IMG/VR virus record: IMGVR_UViG_3300044641_000792
Location: 1 to 58,442 of that record
Direction: 5' to 3' (one strand)
DNA from: a virus
Length of the DNA: 58,442 nt
Shown here one piece after another: positions 30,423 through 45,306 of the stretch. Within the stretch, counting starts at the first letter, position 1. The number at the start of each line of letters is the position of its first letter. The position numbers were made by a program, and so were the translations under genes. Below the pieces are notes generated by a model, which saw nothing but the letters and a program-made list of their open reading frames with translations, did no database searches and was not told where the DNA came from.

Positions 30423-30570
30423 TTTGTTTCCTGTATTCAATTACCTCATTTAACAACCGCTCCATCTCATCAGCCGCCATCAAGTGAAACGGACTGATCG
30501 GTTTATGACTGGCTATTGAGCGCATCATGCCGATGGTTGTTCGTGCAGTTGTTTCACTCAAGGGCTTCAT
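30379..30570 (-). CDS. Small unknown protein (63 aa)
   Basis: Start at 30570 by ATGA overlap; the longer frame upstream is not needed. Helical (TTARTTIGMMRSIASHKPIS; LMAADEMERLLNEVIEYRKQ) with a very basic tail. Confidence 0.65.
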   Translation of the reverse strand: MKPLSETTARTTIGMMRSIASHKPISPFHLMAADEMERLLNEVIEYRKQNESKNKPKKNLEKT

Positions 30571-31199
30571 GCGCTCTTCTCCTTTATGTCGTAAAACCAA
30601 TCCTCCCCAGCCGACCATTTTCGGGTGCCGTCTACTGTCCACAAAGTCTTTGCCGCTTGAAAGTCAGGGAACTTTGTCTCAGCAGGAATTAAACTTTGGT
30701 CGTACCACAGGCACCGATTGTTTGGCTGACAAGCAAACTGCCCGTTATCAAGGGCAATCCAATTAAAAGACTTGTGCTCCTCGGCTTGCTCAGTAAACCC
30801 AGTGTCCAAGTCCATACCTTCGGCGCAGAAGTCCACAGTAAACAGGTAACGACCAAAGTGCCACTCCCTGTCTTTACCCAAGAACTTCACGCCCAAATTA
30901 CGCAAGCCAATCTTTTCAATGATTGTGAAGCGGTAGCCCATGCAGTCCCAAAGCTGAAGCGTATCGACTGGCAGATCGCCATGCTCCTCTTGCCACACAT
31001 AGGCGTGGATAGGTAGCTTGTCGTACAACGCGCCATAAGCTGGGAGCAAAGACTCAATGCGGAACACTTGCCCGCGCAAAGCTTTTAAACTAACCCAAAC
31101 CGCAGGCTCCAACTCGCCATGACCCTTTTGAAAGTTGTAAAGAAACTCTTTACGAACAAAACATTTAAGGGGCGGTAGTGATGCCACGATGTAGCTCAT
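30567..31199 (-). CDS. Conserved phage protein, unknown (210 aa)
   Basis: Beta-rich throughout. Conserved stretches: PPLKCFVRKEFLYNFQKGHG, YDKLPIHAYVW, LQLWDCMGYRFTIIEK, and a C-terminal TLWTVDGTRKWSAGEDWFYD. Homologues are widespread in phage accessory regions. I do not recognise a catalytic centre. Confidence 0.7.
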   Translation of the reverse strand: MSYIVASLPPLKCFVRKEFLYNFQKGHGELEPAVWVSLKALRGQVFRIESLLPAYGALYDKLPIHAYVWQEEHGDLPVDTLQLWDCMGYRFTIIEKIGLRNLGVKFLGKDREWHFGRYLFTVDFCAEGMDLDTGFTEQAEEHKSFNWIALDNGQFACQPNNRCLWYDQSLIPAETKFPDFQAAKTLWTVDGTRKWSAGEDWFYDIKEKSA

Positions 31200-31432: not shown

Positions 31433-31596
31433 GTGTTCTTCTCCTTGAGCGCCCTTTGAATCACCCTAGCAAACGCTATCTCACGCTCGCTTCTGCCACC
31501 TTCTGCGTAAAACCCGTTGAGCAGTTCTAATATCTCGTTACGCGTTAGGTCAACCCAAGGGCGAACGTAGTCTTGGATGTCATCGTCATCAGTCAT
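31429..31596 (-). CDS. Small acidic protein (55 aa)
   Basis: ATGA overlaps at both ends. Acidic N-terminus (MTDDDDIQDYVRPWVDLTRN), then EILELLNGFYAEGG and a helical end. Conserved among related phages; unknown role. Confidence 0.7.
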   Translation of the reverse strand: MTDDDDIQDYVRPWVDLTRNEILELLNGFYAEGGRSEREIAFARVIQRALKEKNT

Positions 31597-31820
31597 GCTT
31601 GTCCCCTTGCTCGGATGTCGTTCACAATTTCAAATGCCCATACTGGTGACGTATATTGATAAGCCTCGTTTAAAACAATCTTTGCACACGCCTCACGCTC
31701 ATGCTCAATGGCTAAGTTGACCAATGCAACCAAGTGCGGGGTTGATACAGTCCACGTCGTGTAGTGCTTGTTCTCTTGCACCACTTTGTGTAGTGCATCT
31801 AGGATTTCATCTTGTGTCAT
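31593..31820 (-). CDS. Small unknown protein (75 aa)
   Basis: First gene of the minus accessory operon, ribosome site AAGGAGGGGCG. Helical; contains LVALVNLAIEHEREACAKIV, a pattern common in small phage proteins. Directly downstream of a promoter with a perfect TATAAT. Confidence 0.7.
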   Translation of the reverse strand: MTQDEILDALHKVVQENKHYTTWTVSTPHLVALVNLAIEHEREACAKIVLNEAYQYTSPVWAFEIVNDIRARGQA

Positions 31821-31869: not shown

Positions 31870-32564
31870 AAGTACAGAGAAGTTCAATAGTACTTACCCG
31901 TAGCCTGTAAAAAGGCATAGGTTCCCCAAGGGTGAGAAGCTCTCTCCCTCTCCCAGCGAAGCTCACTTGGGGCTTGCCTAGAGTACGCAGAACGTAGCGA
32001 TTCGTCGATAGAGGTCTTGTCTCACCATGTCCCTCTATCTTGCCCAGTCCCTCGCTAACAGGCTGGACGGCGTTTCCTGGGGGTGTAGCCAGTGCCGGTG
32101 TTCTCTTCCGCGCCACCCATGCAGGTGCTTGATACGTTCGGAGTACGGCTGTCGAGGGAGGAGAAACTAAGTCGGCTCACATAAAGCAGTGTAGCTTTTG
32201 CATTTCGTCTGACTTTAAAATCTGCGGAGGCGCTAACCCACCGCCCGACCTAGTTCCTGAAACAAAAAAGCCACTTACAACTGCCCCGTCGAAGTTCCCC
32301 TAAACGGGGCGAGGCATGTGTAAATGGCTTTAGAGTGTTGACTTCGACGACAACGAGCGGAATATACCAAACGCTAATAGGCTTGTCAAGAGGTTTCAAA
32401 TACGACACGGTGTCGCTTTTGAAGATGTTGGTGGGCACATGAAGCAGTGTTTGTGTAAAAACCGAACTAAGGAAAAATACAAGCGGCGCTAACCCGCTTA
32501 CCACCAACACGACTGGAGACTGTAGCCAGAGAGCAGGCGTTCACACTCTTAACCTGACTGGCAT
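31870..32564 (-). ncRNA. Large ornate structured RNA (GOLLD/ROOL-like class)
   Basis: About 695 nt without a credible gene. Many helices fit the minus strand, several with G-U pairs that would be A-C mismatches on the plus strand. These include a 14-bp closing helix (32245-32259 with 32161-32175), an 11-bp helix (32269-32279 with 32319-32329), a 10-bp helix (32425-32434 with 32501-32510) and a 7-bp helix (32048-32054 with 32153-32159). There is a likely pseudoknot (32288-32294 with 32342-32348). The heptamer GTTAGCG occurs in three apical loops. The first helix begins at 32562, two bases from the predicted start of transcription. Class membership is an inference. Confidence 0.8.
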
Positions 32565-32570
32565 TCGCTG

Positions 32571-32597
32571 AATATAATCAACGGGCCTGTGCCTCAA
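32571..32597 (-). promoter_or_regulatory. Possible promoter of the structured RNA
   Basis: Minus strand TTGAGG, 15-base spacer, TATATT. The short spacer makes it a weak match, but it lies between the terminator and the first helix of the RNA, at the right distance. Confidence 0.4.
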
Positions 32598-32618
32598 TCC
32601 CCATGCGTGATGCCTCTG

Positions 32619-32647
32619 AAAAAAGTGGCCCCAGTTACGGAGCCACT
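32619..32647 (-). terminator. Rho-independent terminator after the VRR-NUC gene
   Basis: Minus strand AGTGGCTCC-GTAACT-GGGGCCACT (9 bp with one G-U) followed by six T. It separates the nuclease transcript from the structured RNA. Confidence 0.85.
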
Positions 32648-32704: not shown

Positions 32705-32992
32705 CTAACCACAATTTTCTAGGATTTCAAGAGCCTCTTCAGGAGAATTTACAACCACGCACAAGCCACCCTCCCACTCATTGAAGAACTTCTGCTCCGC
32801 CTCGGTCAGCTTCCTCGCAGACGGAACCTTGCCCCCGTCCTTAACTTCCATCAGGATCGTGAACCCCCTGTACCCAACCAAGAGATCAGGTATTCCATCC
32901 CCCTGAGAGATGATTCGCACGACCGCGCCCACCTTACGCATGGCATCTACGATCTGGTTCTGGTTCGCATCTATTCTGTTGGCGTATCTCAT
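32705..32992 (-). CDS. VRR-NUC-type nuclease (95 aa)
   Basis: Matches the small phage VRR-NUC / resolvase-like nuclease family. ANRIDANQNQIVDAMRKVGA leads in, then GIPDLLVGYRGFTILMEVKD supplies the D...ExK catalytic core at about residues 36-51, and KLTEAEQKFFNEW follows. Cuts structured or branched DNA in related systems. It has its own promoter (33015-33042) and terminator, overlapping the divergent recombination operon promoter. Confidence 0.85.
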   Translation of the reverse strand: MRYANRIDANQNQIVDAMRKVGAVVRIISQGDGIPDLLVGYRGFTILMEVKDGGKVPSARKLTEAEQKFFNEWEGGLCVVVNSPEEALEILENCG

Positions 32993-38364: not shown

Positions 38365-41300
38365 TTAAACCTGAGCCATCTTCCGTAGTTCTTTTACATT
38401 GATTGTCTTGAGGATCTCGCGCTCAGTTTCCCGTAGCTCTTTGATTGCCTCTTGCTTTTCAGCAGAACTCATCTCAGAAGATGGCCGGTTTGTAATGTAG
38501 GTAATAGCCTTGCGAACCTTGCCAAGCTGATCGGTTATCTTATTGACACCCTTAGCCAGTCCATACCTAGCCATCTTCTCCTCTGAAGATAGGTACTCCT
38601 CTATCTTCTCTGGGCTTGTGGTCTTCAGGTCTGACACCGTGGCGGCGACCTTGGCTACTTCATCCCTCAGAACATAGAAGTCATTCTTAAGTCCTGACTC
38701 ATACTCTCTGGAGATAAAGCCGCTGGTTCCTGGCAACGTGGCCATAGCATCACGTAAGCTCAGGCTTGGGCGGTCAACGTTGGGGTCGCTATGTAGGACA
38801 GGGTTAGTCATGTAGATAACCAAGCCGCCAGCAGAGCCAAACATACCGCGTATCAAGTGATCGACCGCGATAGGTGACACCAGACCAGTCGCGCCAAGTA
38901 GCTTTGCAATCTCAGAAGTTGTATCGCTAAACTGCTGGGCGGTTTCTTTCTTCTTCTCAAACTCACCAATCAGTGGGCGACCAGAGAAGAAATTGTAGTT
39001 AATACCCACCTCAACCAACGGCTTGATAGCTTGTGGCACAACAGTCGGGCTAAGCAGGGCGGAACCCAGCGCGGCTTTGATAGAGTCCCTGAACTTACGG
39101 CCATCCTCATAACCTTGGTCTGTGAGCAACAGGTATGTGTGCTCAGTGATAATTTTAGGCAGAGTAAATAGATCAGCACGTAAAGGTATGCTTAAACCAC
39201 CGGTGCCTGGAATCATCAGCAGGCGATCACGCACCACGGCAGGCTTGTTCTCGTAGTCCTCATCGTCCCCGTTCAACATTACATACAAGAGGGATAGAGT
39301 CATTACTGAGCCAGTCGTGGCGATCAGTGTCTTGAAAGCATTCTCTCTCTCGGTAGGAGAGGAGCCAACGCCGGTGATAGTTTTATACGCCACGTTCTGG
39401 GCGGCAAGGTAGGCATTAAAGAATGGAATGACCTGACCAGCCAAGGCTAGCGTCTTACTGCTACCCTTGCGACGTACATTCCAAATCTCAAACGCTTTCT
39501 CTAAAGCTTCAGCTTCGCTCAGACCTTGATCTATAGAAGCTGTATACACCGCCTGACGGACGGCATTGTCAGATGCCATAGCAATGTGGGAGAGAAGATC
39601 TTTTGTTCTACCCAACACACCAGGCTTAGCTTTAAAGCCCGCATAGACCTCCGCATCAAGGCGAACCATCTCGGCAGTGAAGTCTCTTACACCCACGACA
39701 CCATACTTCTTAAGATTCTCATGCGTCTGGCTTTGCTTAAATAGCGTAGTAAGAAACTCTTTAGCGGCGCGAGCGGGGATGGTCAGTGCGTACCTAGGCT
39801 TAAGCCCAGAGGTAAACATGGCGGCAAAGGAGTCCTGCGGTAACTGGGACACAGAGAACAATGGGTACAAAACCACAGTCTGACGAAGCCAGTTAGACAA
39901 CTCAGACATCCACTTCCACGATGGAATGACGATGGCTTCTAAGCCATTGAACGCTTCCATGTACATGGGGTCTTCCATGCTGTACTCAACTTGCTTGCCG
40001 TTCTTCCAGACCTTAGCAACGTTTACTCTCTCAACCTTCGGTGTTAAGAGATACTTTGTGTTGCCGTCCTCATCTTCAAAGTCAACAACCTCAAAGCCGT
40101 CAAGCTCTTTGTTCGCAATACCGGCTTGCTTGAGTGAGTCAAATGGTTTGGCACCGCTAGAAATCTTGCCAACTATTGGCTGTTTGTTTGCGTCTACACC
40201 AGTGATTCCTAGGTTCTCTTTGTTCTTTACGTCTTTAATCTTTATGGCGGCACCGACCTCTTCGGCGGCATCAGCCAATGCGACGGCAGACTTGTTCCGC
40301 ACGGCACGGTTCACTGAGTATTGAGTCCAGCGAATCATGTTGTCAAAGATGTCATTGACAGGCTTGTCTGATCCTTTGAGCTTTTTCTCTTTAGCCTGAA
40401 CCATCAGACCACGGATGTATTCCTTCGGGCCTTTGCCTTCTTCAAGTTGCTCCTCGCGGAAGAACGGAACGTAGTCGGCGTTGTCCAGTAAGAACTCGGC
40501 CTCTTCTTCCGTCCACAGTCCAGAGTCAACCAGAATCCTAGAGGTGTTTGCACGAATAGAATTCCAAGTCTTTACCGCCGCATTCAACTCAGGCATCACA
40601 GCGAACAAGGACATACCTGCGGCAATCTGATCCTCAACACTTAGATCGCTTTCGCCGTTGATCTTATGAATAAACTTCTTTTCTTTTAGGCGGTTAGAAG
40701 CTTTCTCACTCAGGGCGCTAGATGCTACTGGCTTGCTTGAACGAATGGAGGCGGCCTCGGCCTTCATCGCGGCGACCTCGCGGTCAATCTGATTGTTGAA
40801 CTCAACCATTGACTTAAGACGCTTAGCTTCAAAAGCCGTGTGAGCAATGACCTCTGCCTCTGCCTTTGTCTTGCCGTACTTCTCTGCTATGACATCAATG
40901 TCTTTGGATAGCTGGATGAAGTTGGCATCGTCATTAAAAGCTTCCCACTTATGAAGCTCTCGGTTGTACTTTAAATTTCCCAAAGTAATGAACAAGCTAG
41001 CAAGCGCATCGGCGTGGACAGTCTGACTGATACTTGTATTAAGCAGAGTACCAATCTTATCTTTGGCGGCCATCGTGGAATCATAGATGGCACGGCGGAT
41101 CCGGTTGTTCAGGGCGGCATCGCTAGAGAACGCCATGGTCTGAACCTTATCCAAGAAAGTGGTGACAGACTTACCCGCCTCTTCAGCTGTAAGCTTTGGA
41201 TTGTCTTTGACATTATCCCAAGACTGACGAACCTTAGCCCTGTAGCTGGGCTCAGGCGGCTTAACCTTGCGACCCAGTTGAGCCATTATGCTGTCTGCAT

Positions 41301-44300
41301 CTTTAGATGGCGTACCCTCTTGATTGGCAAACAACTCCTGAACTTTTTTAGAGAACAAACTTTGTTGTACGCCAGTGGTAGCCTTCTTTTTACCAGGCCC
41401 AAAAGAGTAGCCCTGCCTCTCTATGCCCTCAGAAATCTCTTCAATATCCACAGAGAGAAGCTCATCTGTCGTCCTGACTAAGCGGTCTAATGCACTCTCG
41501 TAAGGAGGAGCAACGCCCAGAATCTTACGAATCAATTCAATAAGCTTACTGAAAACAGTACCTTCTCCGACCTTGATGCCGGACATATACTTTTGCATCC
41601 GCTCATCAGTAATACCCCAAGAGACTAACTCATCATCATTTCTAAAGGCATTGTTTTTTCTGTCGTAATAATCTTTAGCAATACCAGACAGGGTGCCATT
41701 CTTAAAATCCTTTTGGTAATGTGCAATGACTTGATTAAACAAAAGCCTAATCTCTTTGACCATCGGATCACTGGCCTGTAAGAAGTGCAACTGACCACGG
41801 GTGGCTACGTGCAACAACTCATGCAAGATTGTGCGGTACTCAACTCCAGGAGGATAGCCGTCTTGGTTTTTAAATACCGTTGGGCCATTTAAAACAATAC
41901 GGATAGTTGTATCTTCGCCCTTAGATTTATCACCCCAGATAAAACTAGCCACACCTCTGGCATTTCTCATTGGCAGTGCGGGTGTATTTGGGCGGGTATC
42001 TCCAGTCAAAACATCAAACCCAAAGCGAACCCCCTTGGCTTCCATCTGTTTGATGCGGGCGTAAACCTTCTGAGCAAAGTATTTTGCTACAGCGTTAGGA
42101 GCATTGTCTATTGCCCACTTTGATACCTCAACCAAAGTCTTACCTTTGATTTGTTTGGCAATCTCTAAGTTTTCTTTGGTATTGTTAAAGCCTAGGGTTG
42201 AACCTTCTGCTGAGTATAGGAAGTCTTCCTTTGGTGCGTACTCTACATCTTTGGCAAGGATAAAGTTACCAACTTGAATTAACTCAGAAGCCTTTACCAC
42301 AGGCTCACCAGTTACGCGGTCGTAGAAGTAACCTCGTTGCGCAGGATTAACATTGACTTGTGTCCAAGCGGGGTCATTGCCTAAACGTTTAACTTCTGCA
42401 AAAGCTTGCTCCGGCGTAATAGGAACCCACGTTCCCTCTGCGGTTTGAAGTCGCTCTTTAACTGGGTTAATACCCATGTTCAAGCCTTTCTCCTGATCGC
42501 GAGGAGCAAAGAACACATCTTTAATGCGGGCTACGCTTGCGTAAGAGATAAGACTACCGGCAGATGAATACGCTTCGCCAGTCTTTGGATTGTTATTGGC
42601 TTTGCCCTCGTGGATGGATACCACGTTAGCCCCTGCTTCGCGAGCGGGCAAGTCCATACGCAAGCCTACTCGCGTACCCTCTTTAATAGGAGCATTCAAC
42701 ACGCCTCTACCACCACCGCGTAGTGCGGCTTCCATCTGCTCATTACTAGCAGGAGGCTGTAGCTTTTGTATGTCTACGTCTTTGATGGGCGTGTAGTAAT
42801 CAACGTACTTTGTAAACTCCTCACGGCTCATTGTTCCTTCTTGGAACTTTTTACCTGCGGCTTGAACCTGTAGGTTTCTACCCTTGCTGGGTTTGATTCC
42901 AGTTGTATCTAGCTCTGGTGGCTTTACCTTTGCGGATGTAGTAAAGATGTCCTTCTGCCCACGGGCGGCGGCCTCGTCAGCCTCACGGTCACTGCCGGTT
43001 AGGGTAAAGTCAGCCTTAGCCGCATCAGCTTTGGCTTTGTCTTCCTTGGCCTTCTCTTCATCTTTGCGTTGCTTCTCCGCTTTGGCGGCGGCCTCTTGTT
43101 TGTCAATGATGTCTTGAGGCGTAGGACTGGTTAGCCCTTCTGCCGGAGTAGCATCTTTTCCTTCGCGTTCTGGAGTAACTCTAGTCTCGCTTTCGGCGGG
43201 AGCTTCCTCAGTTGCTCTATCAATTTCTGCTTGTTCATCGGTTGCTTTTTGGATTTCAAGATTGACCTCCTTTAATGTTAAAAACTCACGGATAGCTTTC
43301 TCTAGCTCATCCACGGTGTTATCTAAATTTTGGATAGCCATAGTGGTATCAAAGGTGTAGTAGTTCTGTCTACGTACCTTCTCTTTGATGTACTCGACCG
43401 ACTCTTGCTCATCATAGAACTCTGACATTGGCCTCATACGTGGAGGCAAGAAGTCATCAAGCTTGCTATCGGATACTAAGGAGGACATATCTGTGCCGCC
43501 TACTCCGCCCTTCTTTTGCAATGACTTGAACATTAAGCCTGGCCCAATGTCTTCTACTTCTTCGGGCGTAAGTTTTCCGCGCAGGGCAGTCCACAAGCTC
43601 AGACCCTTGTCCTTGCCTTGAGTAAAGCGCCTACGTGACTTCTCCGCTCTATCCAAATCTTTCTGTAAGTCTGTAATTTCCTCAAGCTGGGGAGCGGGCT
43701 CGCCCACAATAGGTGTAGCTTCAACAAAAGGAGGAGCCTCTTCTAGGATAGCAGGCGTAATGGGAGGAGTTATATCCTCTTCAGTCTGAGTCTCCAGCTT
43801 GGCGGCGGCAATAGCATCTTCTTCAGGCTTGACCTCTTGCTCATAGATCTTCATAAACCCCTGCTCAAGAATAGCAATGGTTTCTTCTAAATCGGCCTTC
43901 TCTTTAACAATCCTAGCTCTGGCTTCCAAGATAACTGGATTGGTGTTTGCGTCAACACGTTGCTCCAAGTCTTTTATCTGTGTGTTGTACTGCTTAAGCT
44001 TAGCCTTCTCAGCATCAAGGCGGTTCTTCTCCACGATGGCGGCCAAAGGATCTACTGGAGCGCCAAGCAAAGAACGCTCATAACCAACCTCGGCAGGCTT
44101 CATCTCAGAGATGGGACTAACGGCCTCTTTCTCAACAGGCTGAGGAGCATACTGATCTTCAAACTTCTTTTTATCGTATGCGTCCAACTCTTCTTGAGTG
44201 TTAGCCACAGAGCCATCAGGCAAGATCCTAGGAGTAAAAGGCTCTGACATTCCAATTGCCAAAGGCTCTGCTGGGGCAACTGGGGCAACCGGAGCAGGCT

Positions 44301-45306
44301 CTGGGGCAACAGGTGCTTGCGCCGCAGGAGGCGTTACAACTGGAGGAGGTGTAGGTCTGCCGGACAGGGCGGCAATAGGAGCGGCACCTAATGCACCAGC
44401 CAATGCTTCACCCGTTGCGGCACCAGCCACACCAGAGAACGTATCCACATCAAACCCACCACGTTGGAGCGCAATGTTCTGAGCCAGTCTTTCTTGGCCG
44501 CCTTGTACACCTTCTGGGATAGATTCTTTTACGACAGTCTCGCCAACTCGTCTAGCCAAACCAGGAGCCGCGCCAGCACGACCTGCGGGTGTTAAGAACT
44601 TCTCAACACCAGAGGTACCAGCAAGGCGGCCTAACGCTCCGCCAAGAGCAATCTGTTCAAAGTTAGTGCCAAAGTAATTCTGTGCAGAGTCAGCCTTCTG
44701 CTTTGCAATATCAGGGCTAGTACCGGCATCAACCTCTGCCTGATACACGCCATCATAGATAGAGCCCTTTACCGCACCTAGACCTTGGGCAGTAGCAATA
44801 CTCGCAGGAGCCTTCTCTGCAACGGCGGCAATCGCTCTAACGGCACCAGGGCCTAAGCGCATAGCGGCGGCAACAGGGGCGGCAAACATTGCGGGCAAGT
44901 AAGGAACAAACGATCCAATTGCTTGTGCGGCAGTTTGTAGAGGAGCTTCCAGTACGTTTTGTCCAGCCGCCTTAACCTCTTGCAAGAAGCTTCCGCTCTG
45001 CTCTGCGGCCTTCATGCGCTCGGCTTGACGTTGCATCTCAGCCTGACGCTCAGGGGTCATGCCCGTTTGCAAACCTTGTATGCCTTGAGATAGCTTGGAG
45101 GATGCAATATTCTCTGCACCAGCTACATCAGTTAAAGCTTTAGTGCTACCTAAAGCGCCAATGCCAAATGATGCGCCAAGATCCCCCAAGGAGAATCCTG
45201 CTGGGCCAGTAGGCTTTTTACCAAACAGGTCAGCGCTAAGATCTCGACCTTTAGATTTATCCCCTTCGGGGCCAAATAGCTCCGAACTTAGATCGCGTCC
45301 AGCCAT
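38365..45306 (-). CDS. Giant polyvalent ejection protein (2313 aa)
   Basis: N-terminus has two copies of GRDLS..LFG (residues ~3-28) and then Ala/Gly/Pro-rich hydrophobic stretches. Residues ~500-900 are charged and disordered. A metallopeptidase-like HELLH lies near residue 1161 (TILHELLHVATRG), with beta-rich sequence around it. A region near 1930-1965 (RRKGSSKTLALAGQVIPFFN) matches large polyvalent domain LPD38. Such proteins are packed in the head and injected with DNA to process host or phage targets. Last gene of late block B. Confidence 0.8.
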   Translation of the reverse strand: MAGRDLSSELFGPEGDKSKGRDLSADLFGKKPTGPAGFSLGDLGASFGIGALGSTKALTDVAGAENIASSKLSQGIQGLQTGMTPERQAEMQRQAERMKAAEQSGSFLQEVKAAGQNVLEAPLQTAAQAIGSFVPYLPAMFAAPVAAAMRLGPGAVRAIAAVAEKAPASIATAQGLGAVKGSIYDGVYQAEVDAGTSPDIAKQKADSAQNYFGTNFEQIALGGALGRLAGTSGVEKFLTPAGRAGAAPGLARRVGETVVKESIPEGVQGGQERLAQNIALQRGGFDVDTFSGVAGAATGEALAGALGAAPIAALSGRPTPPPVVTPPAAQAPVAPEPAPVAPVAPAEPLAIGMSEPFTPRILPDGSVANTQEELDAYDKKKFEDQYAPQPVEKEAVSPISEMKPAEVGYERSLLGAPVDPLAAIVEKNRLDAEKAKLKQYNTQIKDLEQRVDANTNPVILEARARIVKEKADLEETIAILEQGFMKIYEQEVKPEEDAIAAAKLETQTEEDITPPITPAILEEAPPFVEATPIVGEPAPQLEEITDLQKDLDRAEKSRRRFTQGKDKGLSLWTALRGKLTPEEVEDIGPGLMFKSLQKKGGVGGTDMSSLVSDSKLDDFLPPRMRPMSEFYDEQESVEYIKEKVRRQNYYTFDTTMAIQNLDNTVDELEKAIREFLTLKEVNLEIQKATDEQAEIDRATEEAPAESETRVTPEREGKDATPAEGLTSPTPQDIIDKQEAAAKAEKQRKDEEKAKEDKAKADAAKADFTLTGSDREADEAAARGQKDIFTTSAKVKPPELDTTGIKPSKGRNLQVQAAGKKFQEGTMSREEFTKYVDYYTPIKDVDIQKLQPPASNEQMEAALRGGGRGVLNAPIKEGTRVGLRMDLPAREAGANVVSIHEGKANNNPKTGEAYSSAGSLISYASVARIKDVFFAPRDQEKGLNMGINPVKERLQTAEGTWVPITPEQAFAEVKRLGNDPAWTQVNVNPAQRGYFYDRVTGEPVVKASELIQVGNFILAKDVEYAPKEDFLYSAEGSTLGFNNTKENLEIAKQIKGKTLVEVSKWAIDNAPNAVAKYFAQKVYARIKQMEAKGVRFGFDVLTGDTRPNTPALPMRNARGVASFIWGDKSKGEDTTIRIVLNGPTVFKNQDGYPPGVEYRTILHELLHVATRGQLHFLQASDPMVKEIRLLFNQVIAHYQKDFKNGTLSGIAKDYYDRKNNAFRNDDELVSWGITDERMQKYMSGIKVGEGTVFSKLIELIRKILGVAPPYESALDRLVRTTDELLSVDIEEISEGIERQGYSFGPGKKKATTGVQQSLFSKKVQELFANQEGTPSKDADSIMAQLGRKVKPPEPSYRAKVRQSWDNVKDNPKLTAEEAGKSVTTFLDKVQTMAFSSDAALNNRIRRAIYDSTMAAKDKIGTLLNTSISQTVHADALASLFITLGNLKYNRELHKWEAFNDDANFIQLSKDIDVIAEKYGKTKAEAEVIAHTAFEAKRLKSMVEFNNQIDREVAAMKAEAASIRSSKPVASSALSEKASNRLKEKKFIHKINGESDLSVEDQIAAGMSLFAVMPELNAAVKTWNSIRANTSRILVDSGLWTEEEAEFLLDNADYVPFFREEQLEEGKGPKEYIRGLMVQAKEKKLKGSDKPVNDIFDNMIRWTQYSVNRAVRNKSAVALADAAEEVGAAIKIKDVKNKENLGITGVDANKQPIVGKISSGAKPFDSLKQAGIANKELDGFEVVDFEDEDGNTKYLLTPKVERVNVAKVWKNGKQVEYSMEDPMYMEAFNGLEAIVIPSWKWMSELSNWLRQTVVLYPLFSVSQLPQDSFAAMFTSGLKPRYALTIPARAAKEFLTTLFKQSQTHENLKKYGVVGVRDFTAEMVRLDAEVYAGFKAKPGVLGRTKDLLSHIAMASDNAVRQAVYTASIDQGLSEAEALEKAFEIWNVRRKGSSKTLALAGQVIPFFNAYLAAQNVAYKTITGVGSSPTERENAFKTLIATTGSVMTLSLLYVMLNGDDEDYENKPAVVRDRLLMIPGTGGLSIPLRADLFTLPKIITEHTYLLLTDQGYEDGRKFRDSIKAALGSALLSPTVVPQAIKPLVEVGINYNFFSGRPLIGEFEKKKETAQQFSDTTSEIAKLLGATGLVSPIAVDHLIRGMFGSAGGLVIYMTNPVLHSDPNVDRPSLSLRDAMATLPGTSGFISREYESGLKNDFYVLRDEVAKVAATVSDLKTTSPEKIEEYLSSEEKMARYGLAKGVNKITDQLGKVRKAITYITNRPSSEMSSAEKQEAIKELRETEREILKTINVKELRKMAQV

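What the first reader, a model, noticed from the sequence alone, without database searches (positions are those of the whole stretch)
31870..32564. Large ornate non-coding RNA between two phage operons
About 695 nt hold no credible gene but many long helices. On the minus strand, several helices gain G-U pairs where the plus strand would have A-C mismatches: 14 bp (32245-32259 with 32161-32175), 11 bp (32269-32279 with 32319-32329), 10 bp (32425-32434 with 32501-32510). A terminator lies just upstream and a candidate promoter is placed so that transcription starts two bases before the first helix (32525-32562). A 7-bp pseudoknot (32288-32294 with 32342-32348) is likely. Size, phage setting and freshwater-type genome recall GOLLD and ROOL RNAs, large phage RNAs that form cages; it may be a member or a new class.
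Basis: partly seen in the sequence, partly recalled or inferred. Interest (0 to 1): 0.93.

Follow-up and report, generated by a model that had tools for sequence, protein, structure and literature searches.

The report
Modular structured phage RNA locus
This phage carries a non-coding stretch built from several separately conserved, intricately folded RNA modules that recur in hundreds of other environmental phage sequences and match no catalogued RNA family, so it appears to be a new class of viral RNA whose function is still unknown.

Summary
The structured minus-strand RNA is real and conserved, but it is not one 695-nt RNA.

The locus (about 32612 to 31917) is a chain of separable modules:
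- hairpin H0 with three-way-junction module M1;
- a conserved sigma-70 promoter (TTGACA-17-TATATT, 32389-32361), predicted start 32354;
- a hairpin with a 9-bp pseudoknot, ending in a U-run;
- a second module, M2;
- a roughly 230-nt domain D with its own pseudoknot.

D mostly occurs without M. Compensatory changes support M, D, H0 and both pseudoknots. G.U pairs far outnumber A.C mismatches on the RNA strand.

Rfam 15 has no relevant match in the window region even at E<=10, so GOLLD/ROOL membership is not supported.

D's neighbouring genes vary widely and the next ORF is often on the opposite strand, so I favour a phage-made RNA acting in trans over a leader of one gene. Function is inferred, not shown.

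The parts
32504..32612 (-). Hairpin H0: 5' box CATCACGCATGGGGATTG (32612-32595), variable cassette X (32594-32523), 3' box CAGTCTCCAGTCGTGTTGG (32522-32504)
   Evidence: 33 distinct 5'/3' box pairs in homologues; mean 6.91 of 8 paired vs 5.86 shuffled (maximum 6.39 in 2000 shuffles), with compensatory pairs such as GGGTATTG/CAGTACCC and GAGCACTT/AAGTGCTC
32420..32513 (-). Module M, copy 1 (M1): three-way junction, P1 32508-32501/32434-32427, P2 heptaloop GUUAGCG 32493-32487, P3 CACUGCUUCAUGUG
   Evidence: CM R1 66.5 bits, E 2.8e-16; covariation
32361..32389 (-). Conserved sigma-70 promoter TTGACA-17-TATATT with TG; predicted start 32354, the first base of helix S1
   Evidence: 11/12 match; conserved in 67/69 unique homologues at >=9/12 vs 7/198 control windows
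32264..32354 (-). PK-terminator element: S1 (GUUG 32354 / CAAC 32340), pseudoknot PK1 32349-32341 with 32295-32287, long stem S2 32331-32313/32285-32270, U-run
   Evidence: perfect 7-9 bp PK1 complementarity with >20 different sequences across 87 loci; window coordinates; S2 G.U 53 vs A.C 6
32162..32257 (-). Module M, copy 2 (M2): P1 32257-32243/32176-32163, loop GUUAGCG 32237-32231, CACUGCUUUAUGUG
   Evidence: CM R1 63 bits, E 2.6e-15; coordinates
31917..32148 (-). Domain D, type I: multi-helix RNA with pseudoknot PK2 (32057-32052 with 32000-31995)
   Evidence: 35-sequence alignment A2: 24 of 33 pairs with two-sided change, 94.8% cells paired vs 71% shuffled, slid structures collapse; PK2 all 6 bp in 22/22 type Ia sequences
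32624..32647 (-). Terminator-like site of the upstream transcription unit (after the VRR-NUC-like gene)
   Evidence: 10-bp stem plus T-run
32705..32992 (-). Upstream gene: VRR-NUC-type endonuclease / Holliday-junction-resolvase-like, 95 aa
   Evidence: phrog_93 E 6.3e-11 endonuclease, phrog_5702 E 8.3e-5 Holliday junction resolvase; no Pfam match
31593..31820 (-). First ORF downstream (75 aa), preceded by its own TATAAT and ribosome-binding site
   Evidence: sequence read directly; no family

Best explanation
A phage-encoded, modular structured-RNA locus of a class not in Rfam. Shown by comparative sequence evidence: the minus strand holds separately conserved RNA modules (H0, M twice, PK-terminator, D) that occur in many phages in different combinations, each kept by compensatory base changes at RNA level. 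Inferred: host sigma-70 RNA polymerase starts at 32354. The co-transcriptionally folded PK hairpin and U-run release a roughly 90-nt small RNA, and read-through gives a roughly 440-nt RNA carrying M2 and D. Hairpin H0 plus M1 is a separate upstream unit. The products most likely act in trans during infection, as a structured RNA that binds a conserved host partner (a decoy or inhibitor) or assembles with itself, rather than as a leader controlling one downstream gene. M's near-invariant loops (GUUAGCG and UGCUUYAU) fit recognition by a partner conserved across hosts, or loop-loop contact (AGCG/UGCU can pair).
For: M: 89 modules, 421 two-sided changes vs 193 shuffled, covariation 0.453 vs 0.167. 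In Achromobacter dolens a tandem copy has P3 CCC/GGG instead of CAC/GUG and a swapped P2 pair, with the same loops. D: 24/33 pairs covary and PK2 covaries. PK1, H0. RNA-strand G.U asymmetry. Conserved promoter whose predicted start is the first base of S1. One M locus per phage record in 26 of 27 records, two copies at most. D occurs mostly without M: 13 of 113 have M within 260 nt upstream, and 1 of 12 whole records. D loci have 74 downstream-gene clusters among 112 genes and 64 upstream clusters among 114, with the next ORF on the opposite strand in 35 of 119. D can follow the PK-terminator with or without M. L126's RNA ends in a hairpin plus U-run before a gpW-like gene.
Against: No expression data. 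A U-run terminator-like hairpin between the promoter and D requires read-through that is not shown. The 3' end of D in the window is not fixed; a strict scan found a terminator after D in only 2 of 126 loci. Stand-alone M often sits as a 5' leader between a promoter and a ribosome-binding site, which suits a cis role there. D alone is not more stable than shuffles. ORF calls are crude and may overstate gene diversity.
Confidence: 0.55

Rival explanations
1. Cis-acting leader and attenuator. The strong promoter, structured ~90-nt leader and terminator form a switch like lambda pR'-6S-tR', and M (or the PK hairpin) is an RNA antiterminator in the manner of HK022 put, letting polymerase read through into the downstream operon.
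For: Conserved promoter-leader-U-run order. M often lies at a predicted transcription start, before terminase genes or a helicase/primase operon. The upstream gene is often a Holliday-junction resolvase (RusA; VRR-NUC-like), the neighbourhood of the lambdoid late promoter (established knowledge). put RNAs are ~70-nt two-stem elements downstream of early promoters that suppress termination (PMC9378689).
Against: One M locus per phage; M2 lies after, not before, the U-run in the window; D's downstream genes are unrelated and often on the opposite strand; M is a three-way junction, not two stem-loops.
Confidence: 0.22
2. Member of, or divergent relative of, GOLLD/ROOL that forms an RNA cage.
For: Phage setting, aquatic samples, pseudoknots; M loci elsewhere sit near tRNA genes and some D domains carry cassettes that look tRNA-like by eye, as GOLLD linkers sometimes hold tRNAs (PMC12286853).
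Against: No relevant Rfam match in the window region at E<=10; only unrelated weak hits in seven D loci; none over the modules at gathering in other homologues; no tRNA in the window; D is ~230 nt against >800 for many GOLLD.
Confidence: 0.07
3. Decoy array: tRNA-like and other structured cassettes that soak up host nucleases or defence effectors, with cassette turnover driven by an arms race.
For: Cassettes recur and are exchanged between phages; tRNA-like T-arm plus acceptor sequences are seen by eye in some D inserts and array units; 10 of the 11 tRNA genes listed before the script stopped lie within 1 kb of M.
Against: ARAGORN calls no tRNA in the window nor in most cassette loci examined by eye; no target identified; M's loops are almost invariant, unlike an arms-race surface.
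Confidence: 0.12
4. DNA-level element (origin, att site or hairpin DNA) rather than RNA.
For: Intergenic position, inverted repeats, promoter.
Against: G.U far outnumbers A.C on one strand; long-range pseudoknots covary.
Confidence: 0.03

Closest known systems
GOLLD RNA
   Same: Large structured phage RNA, aquatic setting, pseudoknots, modular 5' and 3' regions; tRNAs sometimes nearby or in the linker
   Different: No Rfam match; different sequence and helices; D only ~230 nt; promoter-PK-terminator at the 5' side; modules M, H0 and D shuffle independently; mostly no tRNA island
ROOL RNA
   Same: Phage-encoded ornate RNA with pseudoknots and unknown function
   Different: No Rfam match; no shared conserved motif found; smaller and modular
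HK022 put RNA
   Same: Small structured element near a phage promoter, proposed to act on nascent transcription
   Different: put is two stem-loops of ~70 nt with no terminator inside; M is a ~95-nt three-way junction with invariant loops, one locus per phage
Lambda pR' 6S RNA leader with tR'
   Same: Strong promoter, short structured leader, terminator, near a resolvase gene
   Different: Here the leader has a covarying pseudoknot and is followed by M and/or D; no Q-like gene identified

Membership tests
GOLLD | Match to the Rfam GOLLD model | tested here: not met
   No match at gathering or at E<=10 in the window region; only unrelated weak hits in seven D loci
GOLLD | Length often above 800 nt with a universally conserved 3' region | tested here: not met
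   D ~230 nt; whole locus ~700 nt in at least two units; feature from PMC12286853
GOLLD | Often near tRNA islands | tested here: not met
   No tRNA in the window, though some M loci elsewhere are near tRNAs
GOLLD | Homo-oligomeric nanocage | not testable with these tools
   Needs cryo-EM or mass photometry
ROOL | Match to the Rfam ROOL model | tested here: not met
HK022 put RNA | Two stem-loops, ~70 nt, downstream of an early promoter | tested here: not met
   M is a three-helix junction; put definition from PMC9378689
HK022 put RNA | Suppresses termination through the RNAP beta' zinc-binding domain | not testable with these tools
   Needs a reporter or in vitro assay
Riboswitch or gene-specific leader (for D) | Consistently upstream of one gene family | tested here: not met
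   112 downstream genes in 74 clusters; next ORF opposite strand in 35 of 119 (crude ORF calls)
Structured non-coding RNA in general | Compensatory base changes beyond shuffled and slid controls | tested here: met
Intrinsic terminator (PK-terminator element) | G+C-rich stem directly followed by a U-run | tested here: met
   S2 plus U-run in the window and homologues; efficiency not tested

The most novel reading that the evidence does not exclude
A phage RNA-cassette system: a conserved promoter with a pseudoknotted leader drives an interchangeable set of structured RNA modules (M, D of several body types, H0 with swappable inserts, tRNA-like units) that recombine between phages like gene cassettes and act in trans, possibly through self-assembly by loop-loop contacts.
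Probability: 0.4. Interest if true: 0.93.

Novelty: new variant of a known kind. Interest (0 to 1): 0.85.

Why it matters
Large structured phage RNAs without known function (GOLLD, ROOL) are a long-standing puzzle. This locus adds several strongly covarying RNA modules, spread over hundreds of environmental phage contigs, absent from Rfam 15 and nearly absent from bacterial chromosomes. They are simple enough to transcribe in vitro and test, and the recurring modules and cassette exchange give natural variants for functional mapping. At least two public phage genomes annotate parts of D as hypothetical proteins.

Tried and rejected
Coding potential (only poor GTG ORFs; homologues vary by indels). 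Rfam at both thresholds (nothing relevant). tRNA/tmRNA (none in the window). Purine-riboswitch-like kissing junction for M (P2-P3 linker too long and variable; P3 only 3 bp). Variation in M's UGCUU loop, sought as a loop-loop covariation test: only 4 hits, none convincing, so kissing stays inference. Integron attC resemblance of GUUAGCG (set aside: it lies in an RNA hairpin loop whose stem covaries). MFE z-score for D (not different from shuffles; comparative evidence used instead). Named relatives of the window phage by terminase (023Pt_psg01, DSL-LC04, HTVC027P, HTVC023P, MinM2) and phages related to another M locus by primase (Rollin, RHph_TM3_14A): no M and no exact D-start match (one 1-mismatch hit in Rollin, not followed up). 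D pattern and M in 399 genomes of the Curvibacter order: 0 for D, 2 for M. First H0 helix tests failed through errors in my regular expression or register, corrected. Regex classification of upstream genes as resolvases was too insensitive to give a frequency. One search's script stopped with an error after printing part of its table.

Full report
What is there. The finding describes a 695-nt minus-strand structured RNA in a 58-kb phage record from IMG/VR. The helices are real, but the unit is not. Reading the region against homologues shows, in minus-strand order: a VRR-NUC-like gene (32992-32705) and its terminator-like site (32647-32624); hairpin H0 (32612-32504) enclosing a variable cassette; module M1 (32513-32420); a strong promoter (32389-32361); a pseudoknotted hairpin ending in a U-run (32354-32264); module M2 (32257-32162); domain D (32148-31917); then an ORF with its own -10 element.

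Module M. A pattern seen twice in the window (GTTAGCGCC ... Aligning 89 of them gives a three-way junction whose P1 and P2 covary strongly: 421 two-sided cells versus 193 shuffled, covariation 0.453 versus 0.167, 0 of 500 shuffles reaching it. The search pattern fixed the loops and P3, so their invariance in these sequences is partly by construction. However, a scan allowing any other base at one P3-loop position, with a free P2 loop, returned only four stretches, and the covariance model found almost no degenerate copies. A tandem copy in Achromobacter dolens, found only by the model, has P3 CCC/GGG and a swapped P2 pair with the same loops, a compensatory change supporting P3. The model finds exactly two copies in the window and one M locus, of one or two copies, in 26 of 27 phage records searched whole.

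PK-terminator element. A second pattern gave 83 stretches with a T-run just before a module. Most show a promoter, a short 5' hairpin and a long stem with a U-run. In most of 87 loci the 5' hairpin loop is perfectly complementary over 7-9 nt to the apex of the long stem, with more than 20 different sequences; the window's pair is 32349-32341 with 32295-32287. The promoter scores at least 9/12 in 67 of 69 unique loci against 7 of 198 control windows, and in the window the predicted start is the first base of the 5' hairpin.

In 12 D-bearing records searched whole, M is present in one. Thirty-five type-I D sequences give 33 consensus pairs, 24 with two-sided changes, 94.8% of cells paired versus 71% shuffled, and slid structures collapse. 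A pseudoknot between UAGCGA (32057-32052) and UCGCUA (32000-31995) pairs at all six positions in 22 of 22 type-Ia sequences with covariation at three. The same 5' part of D also heads different bodies. Hairpin H0 covaries too.

RNA, which strand. In fixed P2 columns G.U exceeds A.C 31 to 7; in S2, 53 to 6 (the S2 and best-register P1 counts are biased toward pairing, the P2 count is not). This supports RNA made from the minus strand.

Not a known family. Rfam 15 gives nothing relevant in the window region even at E<=10, nothing over the modules of the homologues at gathering (the one hit, int-alpA in L062, lies elsewhere), and only unrelated weak hits in seven D loci. In INPHARED, D-like DNA appears only in two Manatee Spring metagenomic phages, under hypothetical-protein annotations. 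Of 399 genomes in the Curvibacter order none has the D pattern and two have M; the M pattern hits 8 of the GTDB contigs scanned, three of them the same sequence. My literature search covered open-access papers only, so an unseen description elsewhere is possible.

How it may work. Shown: conserved modules, conserved promoter, covarying folds. Inferred: transcription by host RNA polymerase, partial termination at the U-run, and action in trans. For trans action: 112 downstream genes fall in 74 clusters and 114 upstream genes in 64; the next ORF is on the opposite strand in 35 of 119 (crude ORF calls); D follows the PK-terminator with or without M; in the Halomonas-type sequence L126 the RNA ends in a hairpin with U-run before a gpW-like gene. 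For a cis role: stand-alone M often sits right after a promoter and before a ribosome-binding site, upstream of terminase genes or a helicase/primase operon, and the PK-terminator resembles a phage late-promoter leader. I therefore hold trans action at just over even odds, with put-like or pR'-like cis control as the main rival.

Wider picture. Several loci show arrays in which H0 hairpins alternate with units closed by GUUGGUG/CACCAAC that hold M or other recurring cassettes. Some inserts look tRNA-like by eye, though ARAGORN does not call them. Ten of the eleven tRNA genes listed among the loci before that script stopped lie within 1 kb of M. This modular exchange is the most novel aspect and is described, not explained.

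Noticed in passing
L034, L007, L016, L024, L086, L049, L062: Arrays of RNA units: H0 hairpins with swappable inserts alternating with units closed by GUUGGUG/CACCAAC; recurring cassettes (e.g. AAAGCGGAUGC...GYAGCGAGUA; GGCAGGUAYGAAGYCGGUCA...UUCAUCCCGAUGCUC) shared by different phages.
   Followed up: partly
L066, L077, L120, L102, L034, L138, L035: tRNA genes close to module M (L066, L077, L120: tRNA-Met directly downstream; L102: Tyr and Thr).
   Followed up: partly
window 32705-32992 and genes upstream of D in other loci: The gene just upstream of the RNA locus is often a Holliday-junction resolvase or endonuclease of unrelated families (VRR-NUC-like, RusA, Hjc-like by eye, HNH); frequency not quantified.
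   Followed up: partly
L131 3707-3900, L130 3257-3357, L133 4694-4777: Module M in bacterial contigs: tandem pair in Achromobacter dolens, next to gyrA in Curvibacter, near a VgrG-like ORF in Variovorax (gene names by eye).
   Followed up: partly
L126, L127, L128: The same M-bearing sequence appears in a Vreelandella genome and in Aeriscardovia and Clostridia MAGs from ruminants, suggesting a contaminating phage contig.
   Followed up: no
MW202674.1 5190-5298 and MW202753.1 32462-32515: D-like RNA sequence lies under hypothetical-protein annotations in two Manatee Spring phage records.
   Followed up: no
window 38365-45306: 2313-aa ORF with an LPD38 large polyvalent protein domain.
   Followed up: no
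window 30567-31199: 210-aa ORF downstream of the RNA locus matching PHROG 3704, annotated ferredoxin.
   Followed up: no
L062 588-655: int-alpA RNA (RF02996) found near a module M locus, minus strand.
   Followed up: no
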